Shown here: positions 1,323-63,616 of the stretch, piece after piece
Position numbering within the stretch: position 1 is the stretch's first letter
How the letters are laid out: every line of letters starts with the position of its first letter
Assembly: GCA_018268375.1 (NCBI GenBank)
Contig: JAFDWS010000002.1
Coordinates: 310,001 to 374,000, forward strand
Source: Armatimonadota bacterium
GTDB taxonomy: Bacteria; Armatimonadota; Fimbriimonadia; Fimbriimonadales; Fimbriimonadaceae
Reading direction: 5' to 3'
Length of the DNA stretch: 64,000 nucleotides
Position numbers and translations under genes: made by a program
Notes under the pieces: model-generated
What the model was told of the DNA's origin: nothing
The model's input: only the letters and a program-made list of their open reading frames with translations
Database searches by the model: none

Positions 1323-1426
1323 GAATGTATTGTGCCTAGAATTGCAAAAACAGAGTTCGGAACTCTATATTTGCCAAGCCCTTTCTATTTTTTCAAGCGA
1401 GTTCGAACTCAGCTTAGACTGAACAC
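1323..1426. promoter_or_regulatory. Intergenic region with two related palindromes
   Basis: This 104-bp gap between the array's distal end and the start of the 783-1322 gene holds AGAGTTCGGAACTCT (1352-1366, inverted repeat around CGG) and the perfect 12-bp palindrome GAGTTCGAACTC (1399-1410). They share the half-site GAGTT/AACTC and lie about 46 bp apart centre to centre. A pair of operators for a dimeric repressor is the simplest reading. The region could also act as a CRISPR leader or trailer. Confidence 0.4.
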
Positions 1427-2055
1427 CCTGTTAGAGTGCCACGTTTGACCAGTGGATACAACCAGTGGTGGAATGGTCATTGCCGACTTTGGCCTGTTAG
1501 AGTACCACGTTTGACCAGTGGATACAACGTGCATAGATTTGTATAAGTACACCTATGGCCTGTTAGAGTACCACGTTTGACCAGTGGATACAACAGGTCT
1601 TTATTCGCGTTCGGCTGAGCGGACCCTGTTAGAGTACCACGTTTGACCAGTGGATACAACTTCGGCAATGGTCAGTGTTGCGGTCACAGGCCTGTTAGAG
1701 TACCACGTTTGACCAGTGGATACAACTTGCCCGTTGGAAGCGTTGTCGCTCATAAGCCTGTTAGAGTACCACGTTTGACCAGTGGATACAACTTGCTGTG
1801 CAACACGGACACGAGCAAGCGACCTGTTAGAGTACCACGTTTGACCAGTGGATACAACCTTACATTGTCGGGCGCACACTGACCAAGTCCTGTTAGAGCA
1901 CCACGTTTGACCAGTGGATACAACCTCCTGGAAGGCGGAGCAACGATGTTGTCGCCTGTTAAAGTACCACGTTTGACCAATTGATACAACAGAGTACAAG
2001 AGACGACGTATCGACAAAAGTTGCGATTGTACCACGTTTGACTGATTGATACAAC
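1427..2055 (-). CRISPR. CRISPR array, 10 repeats and 9 spacers of 30 nt
   Basis: Repeats of 36 nt start at 1427, 1493, 1559, 1625, 1691, 1757, 1823, 1889 and 1955; a tenth, degenerate 35-nt copy lies at 2021-2055. Every spacer is exactly 30 nt. Read on the minus strand the repeat begins GTTGTATCCACTGG and ends CTCTAACAGG; GTTGTA is a common start for type II-C repeats. Repeats 2-7 counted from position 1427 are identical; the first and eighth each differ by one base, and the two nearest cas9 (1955 and 2021) are degenerate. On the minus strand each repeat holds TTGTAT-N17-TACTCT, a possible built-in promoter; the cas9-proximal copy improves the second box to TACAAT. No spacer obviously matches this window by eye. 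Confidence 0.97.
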
Positions 2056-2102
2056 GTACCGTTTCAAAACGAGGCTGCGGCATTCACCAACACCAAGGGC
2101 TA

Positions 2103-2220
2103 CAAACACAAGGGGCACCATTGCTGGCGCCCTTCGTCTAGAACCTTTTGTGAGGCCCGTGCGACCCTGTTTCCAGGCTCGTGTTTTTCTTTGTATCCAC
2201 TTGGTCAAACGTGGTACAAT
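2103..2220 (-). ncRNA. Predicted tracrRNA
   Basis: The anti-repeat occupies 2189-2220 on the minus strand and pairs with the crRNA repeat over about 26 bp with a single 1-nt bulge (repeat TTGTATCCACT/GGTCAAACGTGGTAC). It is followed by CGA-G-CCTG-GAAA-CAGG-G-TCG (about 2162-2181), a hairpin with a GAAA tetraloop, and GGGCGCCA-GCAA-TGGTGCCC (2113-2132), an 8-bp hairpin with a GCAA tetraloop. The second stem is fully paired only on the minus strand (a G-U pair there is an A-C mismatch on plus), which fixes the direction. A TTGACA-N18-TACATT promoter sits just upstream at the cas9 stop. The 3' end is a guess. Confidence 0.75.
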
Positions 2221-5200
2221 CAATGTACCGCAGTACCTACAAGCATGTCAAGGTCATAGGTCTCTTTTTGCGTTTTTTGTGCTGGAATTTTTTGTACGGG
2301 CACAGGTGTCGATATAGGCACTAAACACGTGGCGGCGATGACGCGGCCTGTAATGTCGCGCTGCACCTTCCAGAGTGACTTGTCACCCAGGCGCAGAGGC
2401 AGTTTGGTGACACGGACGGCTTTGTGCAGCAACAACCGTTCGGGGTCTGAGGTAGGCCGCAGAAGTTTACCATTTTGGTCTACTTCGTCTTCGCTTTTGA
2501 GGACTGGAGCAAAAATGACACGGTTCTCATTCGACCCTGCGAAACTGGCGGCATAGAACACGACGTCGGTCTCAAGGTCGAGCATGGTGTCCTTTGGCAC
2601 GGCAGTCCTTGTTGTGTACATCAGCTCGTCATGTCGCTTGAGGTATGTGACTGCGTCTGTGGCGCGTTGTGTTTGGCGTTGCAAGTGTTGGGCGGTGCAA
2701 ACAAAACGCACGTTGTCTTTGTCTAACACGACTGCCACGTCCTTGTATAGAGGATTGATTTCTAATACGCGAGTCCTTTGCCCATGGATGCCAGTCTGTG
2801 GCCGCTCTAAGTTGCTCAGTCCTCCACAGAACGTCTTTACCTTGTGTACCAATCCGTTCGGCGTGGCCACATGGTGCATTTTTTTGACTTCGACACCGTG
2901 CGTCTCGACAGTCGACAACATTAGTTCAAACATATTTCGCGAGAGTGGCAAGTCGGCAGCGGTATTGTTGTATCGAGAACCACCGAACACAGCGGTGACA
3001 AGTTCTGCGGCCGACGAAACGGTCTTTTCTCCCAACTTGTACCCATTGTTGTTTGCCATCTCATGCATCTTCCATATTTTCTTGAGCACGGTGTTCACCG
3101 AACGATACTGTGTGTGAATTGTGACCTTGTCCGGCGTGATAGTCTCTCCTATCGGGTTCGGGGCGTACTTTGGCTCTACTGGGTCAGGAGCGTACAGCCG
3201 GACGGGTGTGATGTGTTCAAACTTATCCAGGAGCCAGTAAACGTCAGTTGGTGGTGCTTGGACTTTGCGCTTGTCCTTCTTATAAGCCGCGTACGAGGCG
3301 TCGTCGACGTGGGCTATGACAAACGAGTCGACAATATGATGACGATGGTCGTTGCGGTCTTTACTGGTGCCGACAACACGACCACTTGCTGGCAAATTGA
3401 GGTTGTGCAACCCCCATGCTTGGCGCAAATAAGCCGTGTCATATCCCTTGACTATTTGGACTGTCACCTTGGCGCCAGGCAGGTACTGGGAGATTTTTAC
3501 CCTCATTGCTTGCGCAGTCTGCCGCGCGACAAGAGCGGAGACTTGACTTAGTGAACTCGGAGCAAGCGATTGTGCTTGCTGTCGGTCGAAGTCAATGCGC
3601 TCCAACAACACATCGAAGGACTTGTGTTTTCGTGCCCAGCCTTTCAGCCGTTTTTTGGCGTCTTTCAGCATCGAGGAGTCTAGTTCCGAGGGCAGTTTGT
3701 CGCCTTTGACCTTTTTATTGAACTGTTCGTCGTCCAGGACTATGTTCCAGTCGTCGTCTACTCCTGAGGATTTGCGGTTAAAGGCGTGGTCAAGGTTGAC
3801 TCCGTCGGCCAACAACGCCTGGGCAAGAGAGATACTACGACCCGTCCATGCACCAATCGCAGCAGAAGTTTCTTTACCATCTTTATCGACACTACCACCT
3901 TGCGCAAGGAACTTTTTGAACCGACGCCAGCTTTTATCCGCATGAGCACCGACTTGAGCGCATGCCTTTTCGTGCTTTTTGCGCAACATTCCGTTCATCA
4001 TGTTGGACTTCAATATGGCCGCTCTTTCGCTTTCACCTTTGGTCAGTTCGCGGGCCAACTCGACGCGCATCACAATTTCAAGGTCTTCGGGTGCTATCTC
4101 TCTGTTTGCAATAGCGTCTTTAACTCCTTTCAGACAACCTTGCACCTGTGCGGTGGCGGCATCAATGGCAAACCGTGCACTGGGAGCATTGACTTTCCCC
4201 AGCCTGGGGGTTTGTGGCCATTGAAGAAGGACTGTGGTTTGATAAAAGTCGAAACACGCGTCGTCTGGCTTGCGCGCAGCCAGAAACTGTCCATGTGCTT
4301 GCGCAGGTTGGTTGAGCATAACTTTGTTGAGCAATAGAATCGCCTTGCGCGAAAAAGCGCTCCGACCAGCGGCAGACCATGACGACAAGACCTTGTCCTG
4401 GTCGTCGTTCAAAGTGCGGTTCTGACCAGGAAAGACTGCCGCAAGCAAGTCTTCGACGGCCGAAGCATAATCGTCCACGAACGGAGTCAGCAACAAATCT
4501 TGGACTCGCTCTCGGGCTTTCAACACCTGTAAATCCGTGTCGTCTCCTGGGACCAAAGACTTGACGAACATTGCAGTATAAGGCACGTTCACTTTGACGT
4601 CTGCCGCTTTGACGGTAATGGCTGACGTTTTGGAACTAGGCAATATCCCAGCGATTTTCAGGAGAGGTCGAATGGAAATTTGTTTTCGAGGCTGGGTTTG
4701 AGACCACTGTGCGCACAAGGTGTCGTAAGCTGTTTGTAGTTGCTGGTTGGTCAATGGGCGTTCTTGGTCGTTTTGCACCAATCGCACGTTGGTCAACGTG
4801 TTGAGCGCAGAAAAAGTCTCAGCGTCAGGAAGCTTGGATTGTGCGACGGTCTTGAAAGAATACACCGAACACCGACGAGTACGCAAGGTCGTATTTCGAG
4901 GCTCTTCAAAGACAAACGCTTCAATCAACCTTTGTCTTTCCTGTTCGTCTAGCCAAGATTGTCCTTGTAGAACCAGCCTGACTTCCTCGACGACACTGTG
5001 CCGGGCCGCATTGCGGTGTCCTCTGATTTTGCCTGTGTCAGTCAAAATTTGCAAGAAAGCTTCGGACAAACCACCATTGGCAGTCTTTAAGTCTTCGATG
5101 TACTTGGTATTGGGTGCAATTTTGTCAGAGTCGAGTTTGGCCTGAGTCTTATCCAGCCTCCGTTGGCGAATTTTAACCCCTCGGTGGTTGTGCCAAAAGT

Positions 5201-5594
5201 GCAGAACGTCCATGACCTCTGCGACCGAAACAGGTCGCTGCTTGGCCGTGACGGACAGTTGGTATAGTCGCGTGGCTTGACAACCCTGGTCACGTCCTTT
5301 GGGAGGCAATGTGGGCACCCATTGTACTTTTTTAGTCTGAGCAACGACGGCCAATGCTTGCTCAAACTTGTGTCGTCGAGCTTTGCGTCGTTGGTAAGAC
5401 GTCCGTTGTCGCTGAATCACACGGTCTTTAGAAAACTCACACGAGCCGTCTTTGCCATTGACAACTGAACGAAAATGTGCCACAGCGGCCATTGGTGGAA
5501 CAACCGGGCGACCTGCGATAGAGACACCTTGTACGTAACAACTTGCTGACCCTGTGCCAGTGTCACAGCCGACGCGAACTTTTATCCGACCCAT
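2220..5594 (-). CDS. cas9: Cas9, compact type II-C-like RNA-guided DNA endonuclease
   Basis: A 1124-aa protein (NmeCas9 class size) with the Cas9 domain order. RuvC-I is VRVGCDTGTGSA with Asp11. An Arg-rich bridge helix follows at about 62-82 (QRRKARRHKF), then a long REC lobe. RuvC-II is IVMRVELARE with Glu512. The HNH domain has VNLDHAF (His603) followed by WNIVL (Asn617) and the N-x-K-x-K-G-D-K-L-P block. RuvC-III is DRNDHRHHIVDS with His753 and Asp756, then a C-terminal PAM-interacting region. All catalytic residues appear present. I start at ATG 5594 because TACACT ends 6 nt before it; a GTG at 5615 would add 7 residues. The C-terminus DLDMLV loosely resembles the LD tag. No cas1, cas2, csn2 or cas4 lies nearby, so it may use a fixed array, perhaps against rival phages or plasmids or for self-regulation. 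Confidence 0.95.
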   Translation of the reverse strand: MGRIKVRVGCDTGTGSASCYVQGVSIAGRPVVPPMAAVAHFRSVVNGKDGSCEFSKDRVIQRQRTSYQRRKARRHKFEQALAVVAQTKKVQWVPTLPPKGRDQGCQATRLYQLSVTAKQRPVSVAEVMDVLHFWHNHRGVKIRQRRLDKTQAKLDSDKIAPNTKYIEDLKTANGGLSEAFLQILTDTGKIRGHRNAARHSVVEEVRLVLQGQSWLDEQERQRLIEAFVFEEPRNTTLRTRRCSVYSFKTVAQSKLPDAETFSALNTLTNVRLVQNDQERPLTNQQLQTAYDTLCAQWSQTQPRKQISIRPLLKIAGILPSSKTSAITVKAADVKVNVPYTAMFVKSLVPGDDTDLQVLKARERVQDLLLTPFVDDYASAVEDLLAAVFPGQNRTLNDDQDKVLSSWSAAGRSAFSRKAILLLNKVMLNQPAQAHGQFLAARKPDDACFDFYQTTVLLQWPQTPRLGKVNAPSARFAIDAATAQVQGCLKGVKDAIANREIAPEDLEIVMRVELARELTKGESERAAILKSNMMNGMLRKKHEKACAQVGAHADKSWRRFKKFLAQGGSVDKDGKETSAAIGAWTGRSISLAQALLADGVNLDHAFNRKSSGVDDDWNIVLDDEQFNKKVKGDKLPSELDSSMLKDAKKRLKGWARKHKSFDVLLERIDFDRQQAQSLAPSSLSQVSALVARQTAQAMRVKISQYLPGAKVTVQIVKGYDTAYLRQAWGLHNLNLPASGRVVGTSKDRNDHRHHIVDSFVIAHVDDASYAAYKKDKRKVQAPPTDVYWLLDKFEHITPVRLYAPDPVEPKYAPNPIGETITPDKVTIHTQYRSVNTVLKKIWKMHEMANNNGYKLGEKTVSSAAELVTAVFGGSRYNNTAADLPLSRNMFELMLSTVETHGVEVKKMHHVATPNGLVHKVKTFCGGLSNLERPQTGIHGQRTRVLEINPLYKDVAVVLDKDNVRFVCTAQHLQRQTQRATDAVTYLKRHDELMYTTRTAVPKDTMLDLETDVVFYAASFAGSNENRVIFAPVLKSEDEVDQNGKLLRPTSDPERLLLHKAVRVTKLPLRLGDKSLWKVQRDITGRVIAATCLVPISTPVPVQKIPAQKTQKETYDLDMLVGTAVH
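2222..2251 (-). promoter_or_regulatory. Predicted tracrRNA promoter inside the cas9 3' end
   Basis: On the minus strand TTGACA (2246-2251) and TACATT (2222-2227) are separated by 18 bp, placing the start point around 2215, at the beginning of the anti-repeat. The -35 box is made by the codons for Leu-Asp-Met near the Cas9 C-terminus. TTGACA is a perfect sigma-70-type match. Confidence 0.6.
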
Positions 5595-5704
5595 CCAGCA
5601 AGTGTACCCGTGCACAGGAATGAAAAAATAGGCCTGACATACCTGTGGCTTTCAGTAGACAAGCCGTTTTTTCAATGAAGTTTGAACCCAAACAGGTGCA
5701 GGCC

Positions 5705-5740
5705 GTTGTAGTTGTACCACGTTTGACCGGTTGATACAAC
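5705..5740 (-). repeat. Solitary degenerate CRISPR repeat upstream of cas9
   Basis: Minus-strand GTTGTATCAACC-GGTCAAACGTGG-TACAACTACAAC, clearly the array repeat with the same GTTGTATCAA start as the degenerate array copies. It lies about 110 bp upstream of the cas9 start and carries TTGTAT-N17-TACAAC pointing toward cas9. It could be the cas9 promoter, a lone crRNA-like or regulatory RNA, or an array relic. The rest of the 5595-5760 gap holds only the TACACT box before cas9 and no gene. Confidence 0.8.
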
Positions 5741-13628: not shown

Positions 13629-14621
13629 TCATAGGGTCAACCCTGCCACTCCTGCCGATGCAGGAATGGTGAACAGCCACGCCAGTCCCATGGTCTTTGC
13701 CACGCCCCAGTTCACAGACTTCCACCGCTTTGCCGTGCCGACGCCGAAAATACTGCCTGAGATGACATGAGTGGTCGAAACGGGCATGCCTGAGTGCGCA
13801 GTGGCGAACAAGACCGTCGCTGCTGCCGTCTCGGCCGCAAAGCCATTGACCGGCTCGAGGCGGACAATCTTGTGTCCCATAGTCTTGATGATTCTCCAAC
13901 CTCCGCCTGCCGTGCCCAATGCCATGGCAAGTGCGCACGCAATGACTACCCACACCGGTATGTTGGGTGCCGACAAGACGCCTGCTGCCACCAACGCCAT
14001 GGTAATGATGCCCATAGACTTCTGTGCGTCGTTCTGCCCATGGGTGAACGCCATAGCGGCCGCCGAAAGGACTTGGAGCCGTTTGAAGAACGTTGAGGTA
14101 CCAGCGTTCTTGGCCTTGTGGAACAACAGATAAATGACTGCCATGATGACGAAACCCACGACGAGTCCAATAAGCGGAGACGTGAACAAGGGAATGAGCA
14201 CCTTTGGCACAAGACCATCTTTGGGCTTAGTGCCGAACCACACGAGCGCAGCAGGGCCCCCTGCACAAAAGGCGGCACCCACCAAACCGCCGATAAGAGC
14301 GTGAGAAGAGCTACTTGGAATACCGTACTTCCACGTGATGAGGTTCCACACAATGGCCCCAATCAGAGCGGAGAAAACAACAGCCTGACTGGCCACGTGG
14401 GGGTCTACAAGTCCACTTGCGATTGTCTTCGCGACGTTGGTGGAGAACATGGCTCCAATGAAGTTTAAGCCGGCGGCCATGACAATCGCCATACGCGGGG
14501 TCATGACCCTGGTGGAAACGACAGTGGCGATGGCGTTTGCGCTGTCGTGAAACCCGTTGATGTAGTCGAAGGCCAAGGCCACTACCACAATCAATACAAG
14601 CAACACGCCGATACTAAGCAT
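13629..14621 (-). CDS. pit: PiT-family inorganic phosphate transporter
   Basis: A 330-aa integral membrane protein with about ten hydrophobic spans and both PiT signature repeats: GFHDSANAIATVVSTR near residue 23 and HGQNDAQKSMGI near residue 195 (the GANDxAN-type repeats that bind phosphate and the coupling ion). Slightly short for the family but complete. It overlaps the stop of the upstream DUF47 gene by 8 nt, so the two are translationally coupled. Phage PiT genes are thought to keep an infected, phosphate-limited cell supplied. Confidence 0.93.
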   Translation of the reverse strand: MLSIGVLLVLIVVVALAFDYINGFHDSANAIATVVSTRVMTPRMAIVMAAGLNFIGAMFSTNVAKTIASGLVDPHVASQAVVFSALIGAIVWNLITWKYGIPSSSSHALIGGLVGAAFCAGGPAALVWFGTKPKDGLVPKVLIPLFTSPLIGLVVGFVIMAVIYLLFHKAKNAGTSTFFKRLQVLSAAAMAFTHGQNDAQKSMGIITMALVAAGVLSAPNIPVWVVIACALAMALGTAGGGWRIIKTMGHKIVRLEPVNGFAAETAAATVLFATAHSGMPVSTTHVISGSIFGVGTAKRWKSVNWGVAKTMGLAWLFTIPASAGVAGLTL

Positions 14622-45928: not shown

Positions 45929-46720
45929 TCAAGGCTCGTTGACCCACATATCCAACGGACTCTCTTTGCGCGCTGGTACTAACACCACTGGCCGCACTGT
46001 GAATGTGTCAGGCAAGGCGCAACGAAAGGCCAGTCCAGGCTTGCCTGCGTTGGCCATTTCTTGTTTGGAGAACATTGAGGTCAATAATGCCTTTGTCTCG
46101 GGGGTGTCACTGTTTTTACTCAAGTCTTGAGTGTAAATCTCTAGTGGTTTTTTGGCCTCTGTCGGAATTTCCAACACTAAAGCCTGATAGGTGGTGTCGT
46201 CCTCTTGTGACAGCTTCGCCAAAAGGTTTTGTGTCCGTTCTTCAACGGTCGGCGGGCCTGCTGCCTCATCTTTTGGCGACGGACACGCGAACATAGGGAC
46301 TACGGCCGCAAAGTCGTCGTACACTTCTTGGTTGTTGTCACTCAACCATTGCAGAAACTCAACGCCGGCAAGCAAGACTGATTGGGCGGAAAACGCAAGA
46401 GGGTCAAAAGCACGTTTGCACACGATTGGAGGACCAAGTCTGCCGCCTAGGTTGCAAAGTCGCGCTATGTACGTTTGCGCGGCCTTGATGGACATTGAGG
46501 CCGCAGCACGGGTTGCTGCGACCTCCCTGGTGCTCCACATTTGTCCCAGGTAATCGGAGTTATAGTTGTTTTTGAACTCACCAGACAACTGTGGCGGCCC
46601 GAACACCCTGCATAAAGGTTCTTCGTACACACCTTTGACGGCGGCTTCGGACAAATCCTTGTTGTAGGCCTTGTTCAGCACATCAAGCGACTGTGACAAG
46701 CTTGTTCTCTTGATGTTCAT
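45929..46720 (-). CDS. Unknown 263-aa protein with LD-type C-terminus
   Basis: Mostly helical, with a long acidic central segment, ending RKESPLDMWVNEP, a tag variant. ATG 46720 overlaps the end of the protease gene by 38 bp, an unusually long overlap, so a later start is possible. Confidence 0.6.
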   Translation of the reverse strand: MNIKRTSLSQSLDVLNKAYNKDLSEAAVKGVYEEPLCRVFGPPQLSGEFKNNYNSDYLGQMWSTREVAATRAAASMSIKAAQTYIARLCNLGGRLGPPIVCKRAFDPLAFSAQSVLLAGVEFLQWLSDNNQEVYDDFAAVVPMFACPSPKDEAAGPPTVEERTQNLLAKLSQEDDTTYQALVLEIPTEAKKPLEIYTQDLSKNSDTPETKALLTSMFSKQEMANAGKPGLAFRCALPDTFTVRPVVLVPARKESPLDMWVNEP

Positions 46721-48695
46721 TAAGACTCTTTTGCACTTCGGCTAGTTTGGCCTTGTGAGAGAACCGTGGTTGCTCTGTGAGTCCGTGCTTGCTCGCGTAG
46801 TCCAAAAATGTCTCCTGGGACATGCTCGAGTGTTCGGCCAAATAGCTTGCCACATCTACCAACAGAGCAAAATGCTCTTCCAAAACCTGCGTGGTTTCGC
46901 TTTCACAATCGGACATTATTGTCGTAGCGATTTGACTCACCTTTTCACTGTGTGCGTGGTCGACCACGAACTCAGCGTTTGCCTCGTTCAAATAGCCGAG
47001 CCAATGCTCAGGAAAAAGACCTGCTTTACCAACAGCCGCCTTCAGAGTCGACAAAACCCTGCGCAAGTCTCCTCCAGCACCGTTCGAGACGTTGTCTTCG
47101 CCAAACACCAACGCCTCTGCTTTGAACCCGGCCAGACCCCACCGTGCTTCGTCCAGAATCTCTTGGCGCGTCTTGTAATCGTCTGAAGACTGCGGAAGCA
47201 TGTACCCTCCGGCCGATGATGCGGTGCGAGAGCGTATTTGCTTAGGTGGCCGCCCATAAAACTGCATGTACGCCACAGCGTGCCCGGCCTCGTGCACCGC
47301 GACCACACATTGTTTTTCAGACTCGTCAGAACGCCGCAGGTATTCCACAAGCAACTGTACGTGGCAACGGTGCTCCTTGCTGCCTCGTGCAAAAACGTAA
47401 GACTGTTCCGCAGCATCGTAACGCCACGATATGACCCCTTTCGCTTCACAAAGTTCACACATCGCCTCGGCCAAAAATGAATCGAACAATGGCCCGAATG
47501 AGGTGACGACAGGCCGGGCTCCCTGAGTGGGGAACACACTTTCGTTGAATACCAGCTCGCGCACTGACGGGTCGATGTCCAACTTTACTTGATAGTGTTC
47601 TTGTGCTCGCTGGGCGGTGGCGGCAATTTGATTGTCGATGATGCGCCAATAACACTCACGGTCAAGACTAGGGTATATCACGTGGTTGTTGCCCAGCCTG
47701 GCGATTTGTTCTGGGCGGAACCGTTCGGCCAAAGCGTCTTTTACTTGGGCCAAGGTGATTTTTTCGGTTTCGGCGCGCAGTTCTTCAATGTCGATGTCTG
47801 GATTGGCCTCGTGGCTGTGCAAGTACACTTCGTCCAAGTTCCCTACACAGAAAACTATGCACCGCGACAAATCCTTGGGTTCACAAAGTTTGAAACCGGC
47901 GTGAACTTGTTCCACAAGTTCGATGGCCGCATCAATGTCTGTGACTTCAGCTGCCAACTGTGACTGCCAATACTCATAGTTTTCATTAAAACGAAAACGC
48001 GCCGGGTTGGCTTTGTACAAATTGGCGAACCTGAATTCGTCGATGCACAAGACTTGAGAATCTGACTTGTTCTTGCGGGACGAACCTGGTGGTTCTTGAT
48101 AGTTTGGAAAGAGCCTGCGGAATTGGTTTTCGCACTCTACGACTGCGTTCTTCTCGACCTTTCCACCCATGTCCTTGAACCTTTGCAGTTTTTGGAGATA
48201 CTCCAAAGGAAGATTGCTCACGTGACGTTTTCTTGCCAGTGGCGCTCCATCCAGCAAGTCCCAAATCAAACGCGCTGCAGGGCGGTCGACCTCAGAGCCT
48301 TGTTCATTGATGAAACGAATCGTCTGAAACTCGTCAAACACCAACACGCCCCGACCATCCGGAATGCAGTCGGCATAATCTTCCATTTGGTACCGCAGGG
48401 CATAGTCCGAGAAGTTGCCGGCGTATTCGCCCATGTCAAAATGCCCATACGCGTTCTCGAGGCCCATCAAGGCAACAAGGCGCCTAATAAGGTGGGTTTT
48501 ACCCACCCCTGTCATTCCCCATAAACAAATGATGGTCGGTCGCGTCATCAACTCTGGCGTCACGTAAAAAGGCTTTACGTAACGCAGAATAGAGTCAATT
48601 TCTTTGTCAATACTGGCGAACTCTGTCTTGAGCTGGTTTCCAATAGCACGCAGATGCTCGACTCGTTGTTTTACTGTGTTGGTGGATGATTGCAT
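46683..48695 (-). CDS. Clp-type AAA+ ATPase fused to an FtsH-type (M41) peptidase
   Basis: A 670-aa protein. Walker A is GMTGVGKT (60-67) and Walker B is VLVFDEFQT (Asp121-Glu122). LAERFRPEQIARL (~322-334) matches the Clp/Hsp100 F-R-P-E-x-x-x-R-I arginine-finger block, and QGARPVVTSFG (~391) matches the Clp small domain Y-G-A-R-P-L. The C-terminal third is an M41 zinc peptidase: AVHEAGHAVAYM (zinc His468 and His472) and NGAGGDLRRV with the third ligand Asp543. True FtsH uses a different AAA type and has membrane helices; neither is seen here. Probably a soluble ATP-dependent protease. ATG 48695 preferred; a TTG at 48704 overlaps the previous stop. Confidence 0.85.
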   Translation of the reverse strand: MQSSTNTVKQRVEHLRAIGNQLKTEFASIDKEIDSILRYVKPFYVTPELMTRPTIICLWGMTGVGKTHLIRRLVALMGLENAYGHFDMGEYAGNFSDYALRYQMEDYADCIPDGRGVLVFDEFQTIRFINEQGSEVDRPAARLIWDLLDGAPLARKRHVSNLPLEYLQKLQRFKDMGGKVEKNAVVECENQFRRLFPNYQEPPGSSRKNKSDSQVLCIDEFRFANLYKANPARFRFNENYEYWQSQLAAEVTDIDAAIELVEQVHAGFKLCEPKDLSRCIVFCVGNLDEVYLHSHEANPDIDIEELRAETEKITLAQVKDALAERFRPEQIARLGNNHVIYPSLDRECYWRIIDNQIAATAQRAQEHYQVKLDIDPSVRELVFNESVFPTQGARPVVTSFGPLFDSFLAEAMCELCEAKGVISWRYDAAEQSYVFARGSKEHRCHVQLLVEYLRRSDESEKQCVVAVHEAGHAVAYMQFYGRPPKQIRSRTASSAGGYMLPQSSDDYKTRQEILDEARWGLAGFKAEALVFGEDNVSNGAGGDLRRVLSTLKAAVGKAGLFPEHWLGYLNEANAEFVVDHAHSEKVSQIATTIMSDCESETTQVLEEHFALLVDVASYLAEHSSMSQETFLDYASKHGLTEQPRFSHKAKLAEVQKSLNEHQENKLVTVA

Positions 48696-48700
48696 GATGG

Positions 48701-49384
48701 TCAACTAAGGGCTTGGTCGATTCTCAACCAATTGTCCAAATCGCTGGTGATGTGTTCGGAGTCAATTTTGCGCACACGCAACTGTCCACACACAGCAGCA
48801 CCGACATGTACTTGTATTATGCCCTGACGTTTGACGAACAATGCAACACCGCCGACTAAACTGGCCTTGTTGACTAAACCGAGAAAACTCACAGCCGAGC
48901 GCGGGTCTGTTGTAACGAACCGGTCGGGAAAACTCTCGATAAAATCTGTGGGCACGGAACCACCGACGCAGAGTAAAAACTCGTCGTCTTTAGGTCTGAC
49001 GACAGTCGGGTCATAGTGTGAACGACCGTTCGCACTCACGTTTTCGAAGACAAAACTGTCTCCATACGACTCTGGCGCGTCCAGTTTTTGGTAGTACATT
49101 TGACAAACGACCCGGGCAGCAGCCAAAGCGAAAGCTTGTTGACACTGGATGTTGAGCTGGCTGAACGCTGTCTGCCAATAGGCCTCAAAACTGTGGTAGT
49201 TGACTCCGTGCATGCCACTCACGTCGTTCCTGACGACCTTTGGCATCTGTGGTTCTAAGAACTTGGACAACTGGTCCTTGTCCTGAAAGCACTGCAAGTA
49301 CTGCCCCATTCCAGGAAGCGGAGAGGCGCAAATTACTCTTCTGGCGTCGTGAAAAAGTGCGTACTTCGCCATATCTCGGCGCAT
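48701..49384 (-). CDS. Unknown 227-aa protein with near-C-terminal LD tag
   Basis: I start at ATG 49384, directly after the upstream stop. Contains PKDDEFLLCVGGSVPTDFIESFPD and strands VGGVALFVKRQGIIQVHVGAA before ITSDLDNWLRIDQALS, the tag plus six residues. It lies immediately upstream of the Clp-FtsH gene, so it could be its substrate adaptor or target. Confidence 0.65.
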   Translation of the reverse strand: MRRDMAKYALFHDARRVICASPLPGMGQYLQCFQDKDQLSKFLEPQMPKVVRNDVSGMHGVNYHSFEAYWQTAFSQLNIQCQQAFALAAARVVCQMYYQKLDAPESYGDSFVFENVSANGRSHYDPTVVRPKDDEFLLCVGGSVPTDFIESFPDRFVTTDPRSAVSFLGLVNKASLVGGVALFVKRQGIIQVHVGAAVCGQLRVRKIDSEHITSDLDNWLRIDQALS

Positions 49385-61892: not shown

Positions 61893-61936
61893 TGTCCTGA
61901 GCACCTGGATGGCGGATGGGCTATACTGCTCTGATT

Positions 61937-63616
61937 ATGGCACACCAAAGTTTGTCTCAAGCGGTCACGAACGCCGTGGCACAGGCAATCCAACTCGCAG
62001 TCGTCGACGGCGAGTTGCCCACAAGTGTGCTCGACGTGCCCGTCGATATTAAGCGGCCAAGTCAAAACGTGGCTGGTGACTATGCCACCACTTTTTGCCT
62101 ACAAGCGGCCAAAACCTCCGGATTGTCCACCTCTGTAATCTTTGAGGCTCTTTTGCCTTACCTGGAGCAGACCGGCTTCTTTACGTCTGCCGCGTTCGCA
62201 CAACCAGGCTTTATCAACTTTGAACTGTCCCCTGCGGCCATCGACACCTACGCCTCCTATGCGCTGCACGACAACGCTCCAACCATGGTCGAAGACCCAC
62301 ACACCTACAACGTAGAGTATGTCTCTGTCAACCCGAACGGACCTATTACAGTCGCAGCGGCACGGGGTGCTGTCATCGGCGACGTTTTGTCCCGCGTGCT
62401 AAAAACGGTAGGCCACGATGTCACAAGGGAATACTATGTGAACGATGGCGTGAACAGCGAGCAAATGCGCTTGTTCGGCAAATCGGTCAAGCACCATGCC
62501 TGGACAGCATTGGAAATTCCTTCTTCAATGCCGGCCAACGGATATCAAGGCGCATATGTCGAAGCCATTGCGAAGGCCATGGTCTCGAAGTACGGAAAAG
62601 ACTTCCTACTTGAACAAGACGTCGCTTTTTTCCAGTCCACGGCACAGGCAATGATGATAGCGCAACAAAAGTCGGAACTCGCTGGGTTTGGAGTGGAATT
62701 CGATGTGTGGAGCCATGAACAAGAACTGTACGAGTCAGGAAAGGACATCGCAACGCTTGCAAAAATGAAAGAGTCTGGCGCGCTGGTCGAAAAAGAAGGA
62801 GCGCTTTGGTTGAACTCTTCCGCGTTCGGAGACCAGGAAAACCGGGTAGTCCTACGGTCTGACGGCCGTCCGACTTACGTCGCGGGCGACATTGCCTACC
62901 ACTGGGACAAGTATCAACGCGGACACGACAGGCTCATCGACTTATTAGGGCCCGACCATCATGGCTATATTCCGCGGTTAAAGGCCGGAGTTGCCGCCGT
63001 GGGCGAAGACCCTGACACGCTTTTTGTGCTCATCTTCCAAGCCGTAAGGTTCATCAAGGACGGAGAGGCCGTATTGATGCGAAAGCGAGACGGCAACTTG
63101 TACACCTTGAGCGACCTGACAGAAGAACTCGCCATCGAGCTTGGAAGCGCACAGGCCGCCAAAGACGTCGTGCGGTTCTTTTACCTGTACATGTCGGCAA
63201 ACAAGCATGTAGACTTCGACCTAAGCCTGGCAGTCAAACAGGCCGCAGAAAACCCGTGCTTCTACGCTCAGTACGCGCATGCGCGCTGCTGCTCCGTATT
63301 GACAAAAGCAGGCGAGCCCGAACCAGGTGCTCAGTGGGCGTTATTGTCAACAGCACAAGAAAAAACCTTGTTGTTCAAGTGTCTTGAACTGCCGGCCGAA
63401 ATCACACGGGTGGCCGAAGACTATGGTGTCCATCGTTTGGCGCATTACGCGGTCGACACTGCAAAGCTGTACCACGCCTTTTACGAGCACTGCAAAGTAA
63501 TTTTGCCAGACAATCCCAAACTGTCGAACGCTCGGAAAGCATTAGTCTTATTGGTCAAACAGACATTGGCCAGCGTGCTTGGTATATTGGGCGTCTCGGC
63601 GCCCGAGACCATGTGA
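61937..63616 (+). CDS. argS: Arginyl-tRNA synthetase with altered HIGH and KMSKS motifs
   Basis: A 559-aa class I synthetase. The N-terminal Add-1 domain (~1-100), the Rossmann core (GALWLNSSAFGDQENRVVLRSDG, then DIAYHWDKYQRG and LLGPDHHGYIPRLKAG), and the DALR anticodon-binding domain at the C-terminus are all present. In the HIGH motif position the sequence is NPNGPITVAAARGAVIGD (usual H-x-G-H replaced by T-V-A-A), and the KMSKS-type motif is LMRKRDGN. Both are atypical, so activity may be altered, although some bacteria also have variant HIGH motifs in ArgRS. TATACT lies 9 nt before ATG 61937. Confidence 0.9.
   Translation: MAHQSLSQAVTNAVAQAIQLAVVDGELPTSVLDVPVDIKRPSQNVAGDYATTFCLQAAKTSGLSTSVIFEALLPYLEQTGFFTSAAFAQPGFINFELSPAAIDTYASYALHDNAPTMVEDPHTYNVEYVSVNPNGPITVAAARGAVIGDVLSRVLKTVGHDVTREYYVNDGVNSEQMRLFGKSVKHHAWTALEIPSSMPANGYQGAYVEAIAKAMVSKYGKDFLLEQDVAFFQSTAQAMMIAQQKSELAGFGVEFDVWSHEQELYESGKDIATLAKMKESGALVEKEGALWLNSSAFGDQENRVVLRSDGRPTYVAGDIAYHWDKYQRGHDRLIDLLGPDHHGYIPRLKAGVAAVGEDPDTLFVLIFQAVRFIKDGEAVLMRKRDGNLYTLSDLTEELAIELGSAQAAKDVVRFFYLYMSANKHVDFDLSLAVKQAAENPCFYAQYAHARCCSVLTKAGEPEPGAQWALLSTAQEKTLLFKCLELPAEITRVAEDYGVHRLAHYAVDTAKLYHAFYEHCKVILPDNPKLSNARKALVLLVKQTLASVLGILGVSAPETM

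What the first reader, a model, noticed from the sequence alone, without database searches (positions are those of the whole stretch)
1427..5740. Phage-borne minimal Cas9 CRISPR locus without adaptation genes
The 1124-aa Cas9 has all RuvC and HNH catalytic residues (Asp11, Glu512, His603, Asn617, His753, Asp756 from ATG 5594), a tracrRNA-like element and a 10-repeat array with strictly 30-nt spacers, inside a region otherwise full of phage genes. No cas1, cas2, csn2 or cas4 is in the window. Compact Cas9 in huge phages is rare; its targets may be rival phages, plasmids or host genes. Seen: residues, repeats, gene order. Inferred: active nuclease and phage ownership.
Basis: partly seen in the sequence, partly recalled or inferred. 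Interest (0 to 1): 0.88.

Follow-up and report, generated by a model that had tools for sequence, protein, structure and literature searches.

The report
Cas9 CRISPR cassette in a megaphage
A 531-kilobase bacterial virus carries its own complete RNA-guided DNA-cutting kit (a very divergent Cas9, its guide RNA partner and nine fixed guides) but not the genes needed to learn new targets; such viruses have been reported before, but this Cas9 is unlike any in the collections searched and its targets remain unknown.

Summary
On the minus strand the window holds cas9 (2220-5594; 1124 aa, RuvC and HNH catalytic positions intact), a tracrRNA whose anti-repeat pairs over 26 bp with the repeat, and a 36/30-nt array with nine spacers. 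The window lies on a 1.36-Mb contig of a bacterial bin. Its first 531,103 bp (GC about 53%) are a huge phage: terminase, head maturation protease, phage DNA polymerase, dense tRNA arrays. The rest is bacterial chromosome (GC about 61%). The join lies inside groEL at a shared 24-mer, and closing the phage segment on itself restores an intact 539-aa phage groEL. The phage is therefore a complete circular or circularly permuted genome, and the link to the chromosome is probably an assembly chimera. Phage ownership, which the window alone does not show, is supported. No cas1 was found in the phage; the bin's only cas1 is in a separate II-C locus on contig C3. The Cas9 has the fold of compact II-C/II-A Cas9s but no close relative and no resolved subtype. 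No spacer target was found. Adaptation-free Cas9 systems in huge phages were reported in 2020 (PMC7162821): a new, divergent member of a known kind.

The parts
5711..5740 (-). Lone CRISPR-repeat copy upstream of cas9 (GTTGTATCAACCGGTCAAACGTGGTACAAC); possible repeat-derived cas9 promoter (TTGTAT-17-TACAAC with TGn) or remnant repeat
   Evidence: the only repeat copy outside the array in C5:1-454000 (up to 7 substitutions) or, at up to 3 mismatches, in the whole bin and 84 other family genomes; promoter reading is mine, not from the promoter scan
2220..5594 (-). cas9, 1124 aa from ATG at 5594 (GTG at 5615 possible)
2222..2251 (-). Promoter-like site of the tracrRNA (TTGACA-18-TACATT)
   Evidence: 10 of 12 matches; best in the region
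2103..2216 (-). tracrRNA: anti-repeat 2191-2216, internal stem-loops, terminator-like stem 2113-2132
   Evidence: ends are inferred
2021..2055 (-). Degenerate tenth repeat; carries TTGTAT-17-TACAAT with TGn, likely array promoter
   Evidence: promoter reading from the sequence; precedent in II-C repeats, PMC7038990
1427..2020 (-). Nine 36-nt repeats (crRNA sense GTTGTATCCACTGGTCAAACGTGGTACTCTAACAGG, 1427-1990) and nine 30-nt spacers (the ninth at 1991-2020)
1344..1366 (-). Terminator-like hairpin after the array (AGAGTTCCGAACTCT followed by GTTTTTGC)
   Evidence: sequence reading; not listed by the scan

Best explanation
This is a self-contained, interference-only type II CRISPR cassette of a 531-kb huge phage. 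cas9, tracrRNA and array lie on one strand in that order. During infection Cas9, the tracrRNA and a precursor of nine crRNAs are made; the crRNA repeat pairs with the tracrRNA, host RNase III probably trims the duplex, and Cas9 cuts DNA that matches one of nine fixed spacers. Without cas1, the guide set cannot be updated by the phage itself. The likely targets are competing phages or plasmids in the same host. Shown: gene and RNA anatomy, catalytic positions, Cas9 fold, phage location, absence of cas1. Inferred: expression, processing, cleavage, targets.
For: Cas9 family scores and catalytic positions; Foldseek E 1.6e-23 to SaCas9 and 2.3e-23 to NmeCas9, VIA-align Z about 19; 26-bp repeat/anti-repeat duplex and significant tracrRNA fold; tracrRNA promoter and terminator sites. 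Phage: terminase large subunit at C5:164894-165982, phage DNA polymerase E 4e-219 and head maturation protease, head decoration and tail-fibre domains, isoacceptor tRNA arrays, terminase 76% identical to one on a 478,840-bp viral contig, GC step at the join, intact groEL across the circle. Cas9 synonymous codon usage correlates with phage genes (r 0.74) much more than with the host (0.25). The only cas1 of the bin is on C3. Precedent: PMC7162821.
Against: No expression data. No protospacer found. The structure model is only moderate (mean pLDDT 61; residues beyond about 780, including the PAM-interacting part, mostly below 50). The tenth repeat is degenerate. No major capsid protein was named. 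Read coverage across the groEL join is not available.
Confidence: 0.78

Rival explanations
1. The 531-kb element is integrated in the bacterial chromosome at groEL (single crossover or site-specific), so the Cas9 works as prophage-borne immunity of the lysogen.
For: The contig runs from phage into chromosome; the host groEL N-terminal part is fused in frame to the phage groEL C-terminal part, and the host C-terminal part starts contig C11, the layout a Campbell-type integration would leave.
Against: The join sits at the same codon of two homologous genes, at a 24-bp identity, as a mis-join would; C5 begins exactly there; about 390 bp of host groEL are missing between C5 and C11; prophages over 200 kb are very rare (one case in PMC7162821). 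Not tested: integrase genes, read coverage.
Confidence: 0.12
2. The cassette acts as a regulator: Cas9 binds without cutting, or represses host promoters or its own promoter (tracr-L-like autoregulation, with the lone repeat as part of the switch).
For: Lone repeat upstream of cas9; it can pair with the tracrRNA (-37.7 kcal/mol); self-repression by a long tracrRNA is known in S. pyogenes (PMC11417352); phage-encoded spacers against host genes are known (PMC7162821).
Against: All catalytic positions are kept. No spacer resembles the cas9 upstream region or other held phage sequence at 6 or fewer mismatches. No long tracrRNA form was identified.
Confidence: 0.12
3. The phage cassette is updated in trans by the host's Cas1-Cas2 (the II-C locus on contig C3).
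For: The bin holds a complete II-C locus with cas1, cas2 and 22 repeats; the phage array keeps a strict 66-nt period.
Against: The repeats share little beyond the GTTGTA start, the two Cas9s are about 28% identical over 264 aa, and C3 has not been shown to belong to the phage's host.
Confidence: 0.07

Closest known systems
Cas9-based type II systems of huge phages (Al-Shayeb et al. 2020, PMC7162821)
   Same: Huge phage genome, Cas9 with conserved catalytic residues, no spacer-acquisition genes, tRNA-rich genome
Type II-C Cas9 (NmeCas9, GeoCas9, CjeCas9)
   Same: Size class, fold, 36-nt repeat beginning GTTGTA, extended -10-like element in the degenerate repeat, no csn2 or cas4 seen next to it
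   Different: No cas1-cas2; array on the same strand as cas9 with the tracrRNA between them; best identity 23-30% over part of the protein; subtype clade unresolved
CRISPR arrays and Cas proteins of landfill megaphages (PMC12607003)
   Same: 508-678-kb phages with CRISPR arrays, one labelled II-B/unknown; a 421-kb phage with a predicted Cas9
   Different: There the effector calls were labelled speculative and the 421-kb phage's cas9 was not near an array; here cas9, tracrRNA and array are contiguous

Membership tests
Type II CRISPR-Cas | Cas9 with RuvC and HNH nuclease motifs | tested here: met
   TIGR01865 109.6 bits over cut-off 100; catalytic positions kept in 29-row alignment; fold matches
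Type II CRISPR-Cas | tracrRNA with anti-repeat to the array's repeat | tested here: met
   26-bp duplex, -45.1 kcal/mol; z -4.40 and -11.75
Type II CRISPR-Cas | Array of regular repeats and unique spacers | tested here: met
Subtype II-C | cas1-cas2-cas9 operon and no fourth gene (csn2, cas4) | tested here: not met
   No cas1 in the phage; ten flanking proteins match nothing in PADLOC
Subtype II-C | Cas9 falls within the II-C clade | tested here: inconclusive
   End branch 3.05 changes per column, no starred clade holds it
Subtype II-D (Cas9d) | Match to the Cas9d model above its curated cut-off | tested here: not met
   NF049971 58.5 bits, cut-off 375
Subtypes II-A and II-B | csn2 or cas4 in the locus | tested here: not met
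   No PADLOC match in ten flanking proteins; the whole phage was not searched for these families
Phage-encoded, adaptation-free CRISPR-Cas of huge phages | Locus lies in a phage genome over 200 kb | tested here: met
   531,103-bp self-closing phage segment with hallmark genes
Phage-encoded, adaptation-free CRISPR-Cas of huge phages | No Cas1 | tested here: met
   PF01867 rings only on contig C3
Phage-encoded, adaptation-free CRISPR-Cas of huge phages | Spacers match other mobile elements or host genes | tested here: inconclusive
   No match in phage and plasmid records, 85 family genomes, or (4 of 9 spacers, exact seeds only) viral contigs

The most novel reading that the evidence does not exclude
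A phage-specific, deep-branching Cas9 lineage (a candidate new type II subtype) whose cas9 and array promoters are both repurposed CRISPR repeats, so that expression of the whole cassette is wired to repeat sequences whose transcripts the tracrRNA can also pair with.
Probability: 0.18. Interest if true: 0.72.

Novelty: new member of a known kind. Interest (0 to 1): 0.52.

Why it matters
It adds a contiguous cas9-tracrRNA-array cassette in a complete megaphage genome, with a Cas9 far from all others searched and therefore of interest for PAM and guide diversity. It can be tested at once because all RNA and protein parts lie in 4.4 kb. It also shows a practical trap: a bacterial bin and a 1.36-Mb 'chromosome' contig can contain a whole megaphage joined through a shared housekeeping gene, so 'chromosomal' Cas9s in genome collections may be phage-borne.

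Tried and rejected
First judged the contig bacterial from PHO4, ArgRS, OmpA, M41 and ABC hits in the window and from the 1.36-Mb contig length; rejected after PHROG hits, tRNA arrays and the GC step. A 1.36-Mb phage was considered and rejected: the part right of 531,103 has higher GC, dispersed single tRNAs, host-type GroES/GroEL N-terminus and ordinary bacterial genes. Concatenation of a smaller phage: no long self-repeat in the phage part. Stop-codon reassignment (a CUA-anticodon tRNA is predicted): TAG still ends 72 of 483 called genes. Spacer 1 partial hits in several family genomes lie in unrelated genes and are taken as chance. Host II-C spacers against the phage: best 8 mismatches, like shuffled controls. 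Cas9 in the 478,840-bp relative: no match, and no DNA-level synteny with the flank; that record may be a fragment. phmmer of the Cas9 alone against PDB: nothing. Rfam: no hit.

Full report
1. The locus. On the minus strand the window holds, in transcription order, an isolated CRISPR repeat (5711-5740), cas9 (5594-2220), a tracrRNA (about 2216-2103) and an array (2055-1427). The array has nine 36-nt repeats in exact 66-nt register and a degenerate 35-nt tenth repeat at the end nearest the tracrRNA; all nine spacers are 30 nt. The repeat in crRNA sense is GTTGTATCCACTGGTCAAACGTGGTACTCTAACAGG. The anti-repeat pairs with it over 26 bp with one bulge (-45.1 kcal/mol); a fused repeat-tracrRNA folds with z -11.75, the tracrRNA stretch alone with z -4.40. 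A TTGACA-18-TACATT promoter-like site and a GC-rich terminator-like stem bound the tracrRNA.

2. The protein. The ORF scores 109.6 bits with TIGR01865 (cut-off 100) and 58.5 with the Cas9d model (cut-off 375). Pfam finds RuvC_III. D11, E512, H603, N617, N626, H753 and D756 are invariant or nearly so among 29 Cas9s. The best relatives are 23-30% identical, mostly over the HNH and RuvC-III region. In a 100-row tree it sits on an end branch of 3.05 changes per column (median 0.47) and no supported clade holds it; the tree therefore does not assign a subtype. An AlphaFold2 model (mean pLDDT 61) matches SaCas9 and NmeCas9 (Foldseek E about 2e-23; VIA-align Z about 19 over residues 2-845). The C-terminal part is poorly modelled.

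3. Whose is it? The window is G000:C5:310001-374000 of a 3.83-Mb, 12-contig bin; C5 has 1,363,254 bp. GC is 51-57% up to about 531 kb and about 61% beyond, with the step within a few kilobases. The left part carries a terminase large subunit, a phage DNA polymerase at E 4e-219 and a head maturation protease domain, head decoration and tail-fibre domains, topoisomerase II, PhoH, clamp loader, Dda and DprA families, and tRNA arrays grouped by amino acid (seven Leu in a row, five Thr, four Gln). Its terminase is 76% identical to that of a 478,840-bp viral contig and 27% to a 485-kb uncultured phage record. Cas9 codon usage follows the phage (r 0.74), not the host (0.25).

4. The join. C5:1-204(-) encodes residues 1-68 of a phage GroEL, next to a phage GroES-like gene. 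C5:529,688-531,304(-) encodes a GroEL whose C-terminal part continues the phage gene and whose N-terminal part is the host's, next to a host GroES. The host GroEL C-terminal part begins contig C11. The first 24 bases of C5 equal C5:531,104-531,127, and joining C5:531,103 to C5:1 gives an uninterrupted 539-aa GroEL. The phage is therefore complete at 531,103 bp and circular or circularly permuted; the link to the chromosome is most simply an assembly chimera at a shared sequence. A real recombination at groEL is not excluded, because read data are not available here.

5. Adaptation and context. cas1 occurs once in the bin, on contig C3 (6,444 bp) with cas2, another Cas9 and a 22-repeat array. 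That locus has a different repeat, its Cas9 is about 28% identical to the phage's over 264 aa, and its spacers do not match the phage. None of ten proteins around the phage cassette matches a PADLOC family. The repeat core, at up to 3 mismatches, occurs nowhere in the bin or in 84 other genomes of its family except the ten copies at this locus.

6. Targets. No convincing protospacer was found in 50,697 phage records, 72,556 plasmid records, 85 family genomes including the bin, or 1.67 Mb held locally; exact seeds of four spacers gave none in IMG/VR.

7. Mechanism. The parts suffice for RNA-guided cleavage of fixed targets. Expression is inferred: the degenerate tenth repeat contains TTGTAT-17-TACAAT with a TGn, the lone repeat TTGTAT-17-TACAAC with a TGn. 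Transcription from extended -10 elements inside II-C repeats has precedent (PMC7038990). This is a sequence reading; the promoter scan did not list these two sites. Processing by host RNase III and cleavage follow from what is known of type II systems, not from tests here.

8. Novelty. [quoted passage not shown] PMC12607003 adds megaphages with CRISPR arrays. So the kind is known. New here are the complete genome hidden in a bacterial bin, the very divergent Cas9 and the lone-repeat arrangement.

Noticed in passing
L023 (G000:C3:1-6444): A complete II-C locus (Cas9, Cas1, Cas2, 22 repeats with a 2-N gap in the array) as a small separate contig, probably of the bin's bacterium.
   Followed up: partly
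C5:1-204 and C5:529688-531304; C11:1-1005: Phage and host groES-groEL operons recombined or mis-joined at a 24-bp identity inside groEL; the bin's 1.36-Mb contig is a phage-chromosome fusion, so the bin's genome statistics include the phage.
   Followed up: partly
L020:18019-19580, L021, L038, L039 (C5 about 432-520 kb): Large tRNA arrays sorted by amino acid, including one predicted CUA-anticodon tRNA (L038:10178-10252), although TAG still ends about 15% of the called phage genes.
   Followed up: partly
window 13629-14621(-): Full-length PHO4 phosphate transporter (325.9 bits) in a phage genome.
   Followed up: no
window 61916-63616(+): Divergent arginyl-tRNA synthetase; its only PHROG match is a phage family (phrog_15344).
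   Followed up: no
window 46683-48704(-): AAA+ protein with a peptidase M41 (FtsH-like) domain and a ClpB-type small domain, an unusual combination.
   Followed up: no
window 1352-1366 and 1399-1410: Two near-identical palindromes (GAGTTCGGAACTC, GAGTTCGAACTC) that occur only beside the array within C5:1-454000.
   Followed up: partly
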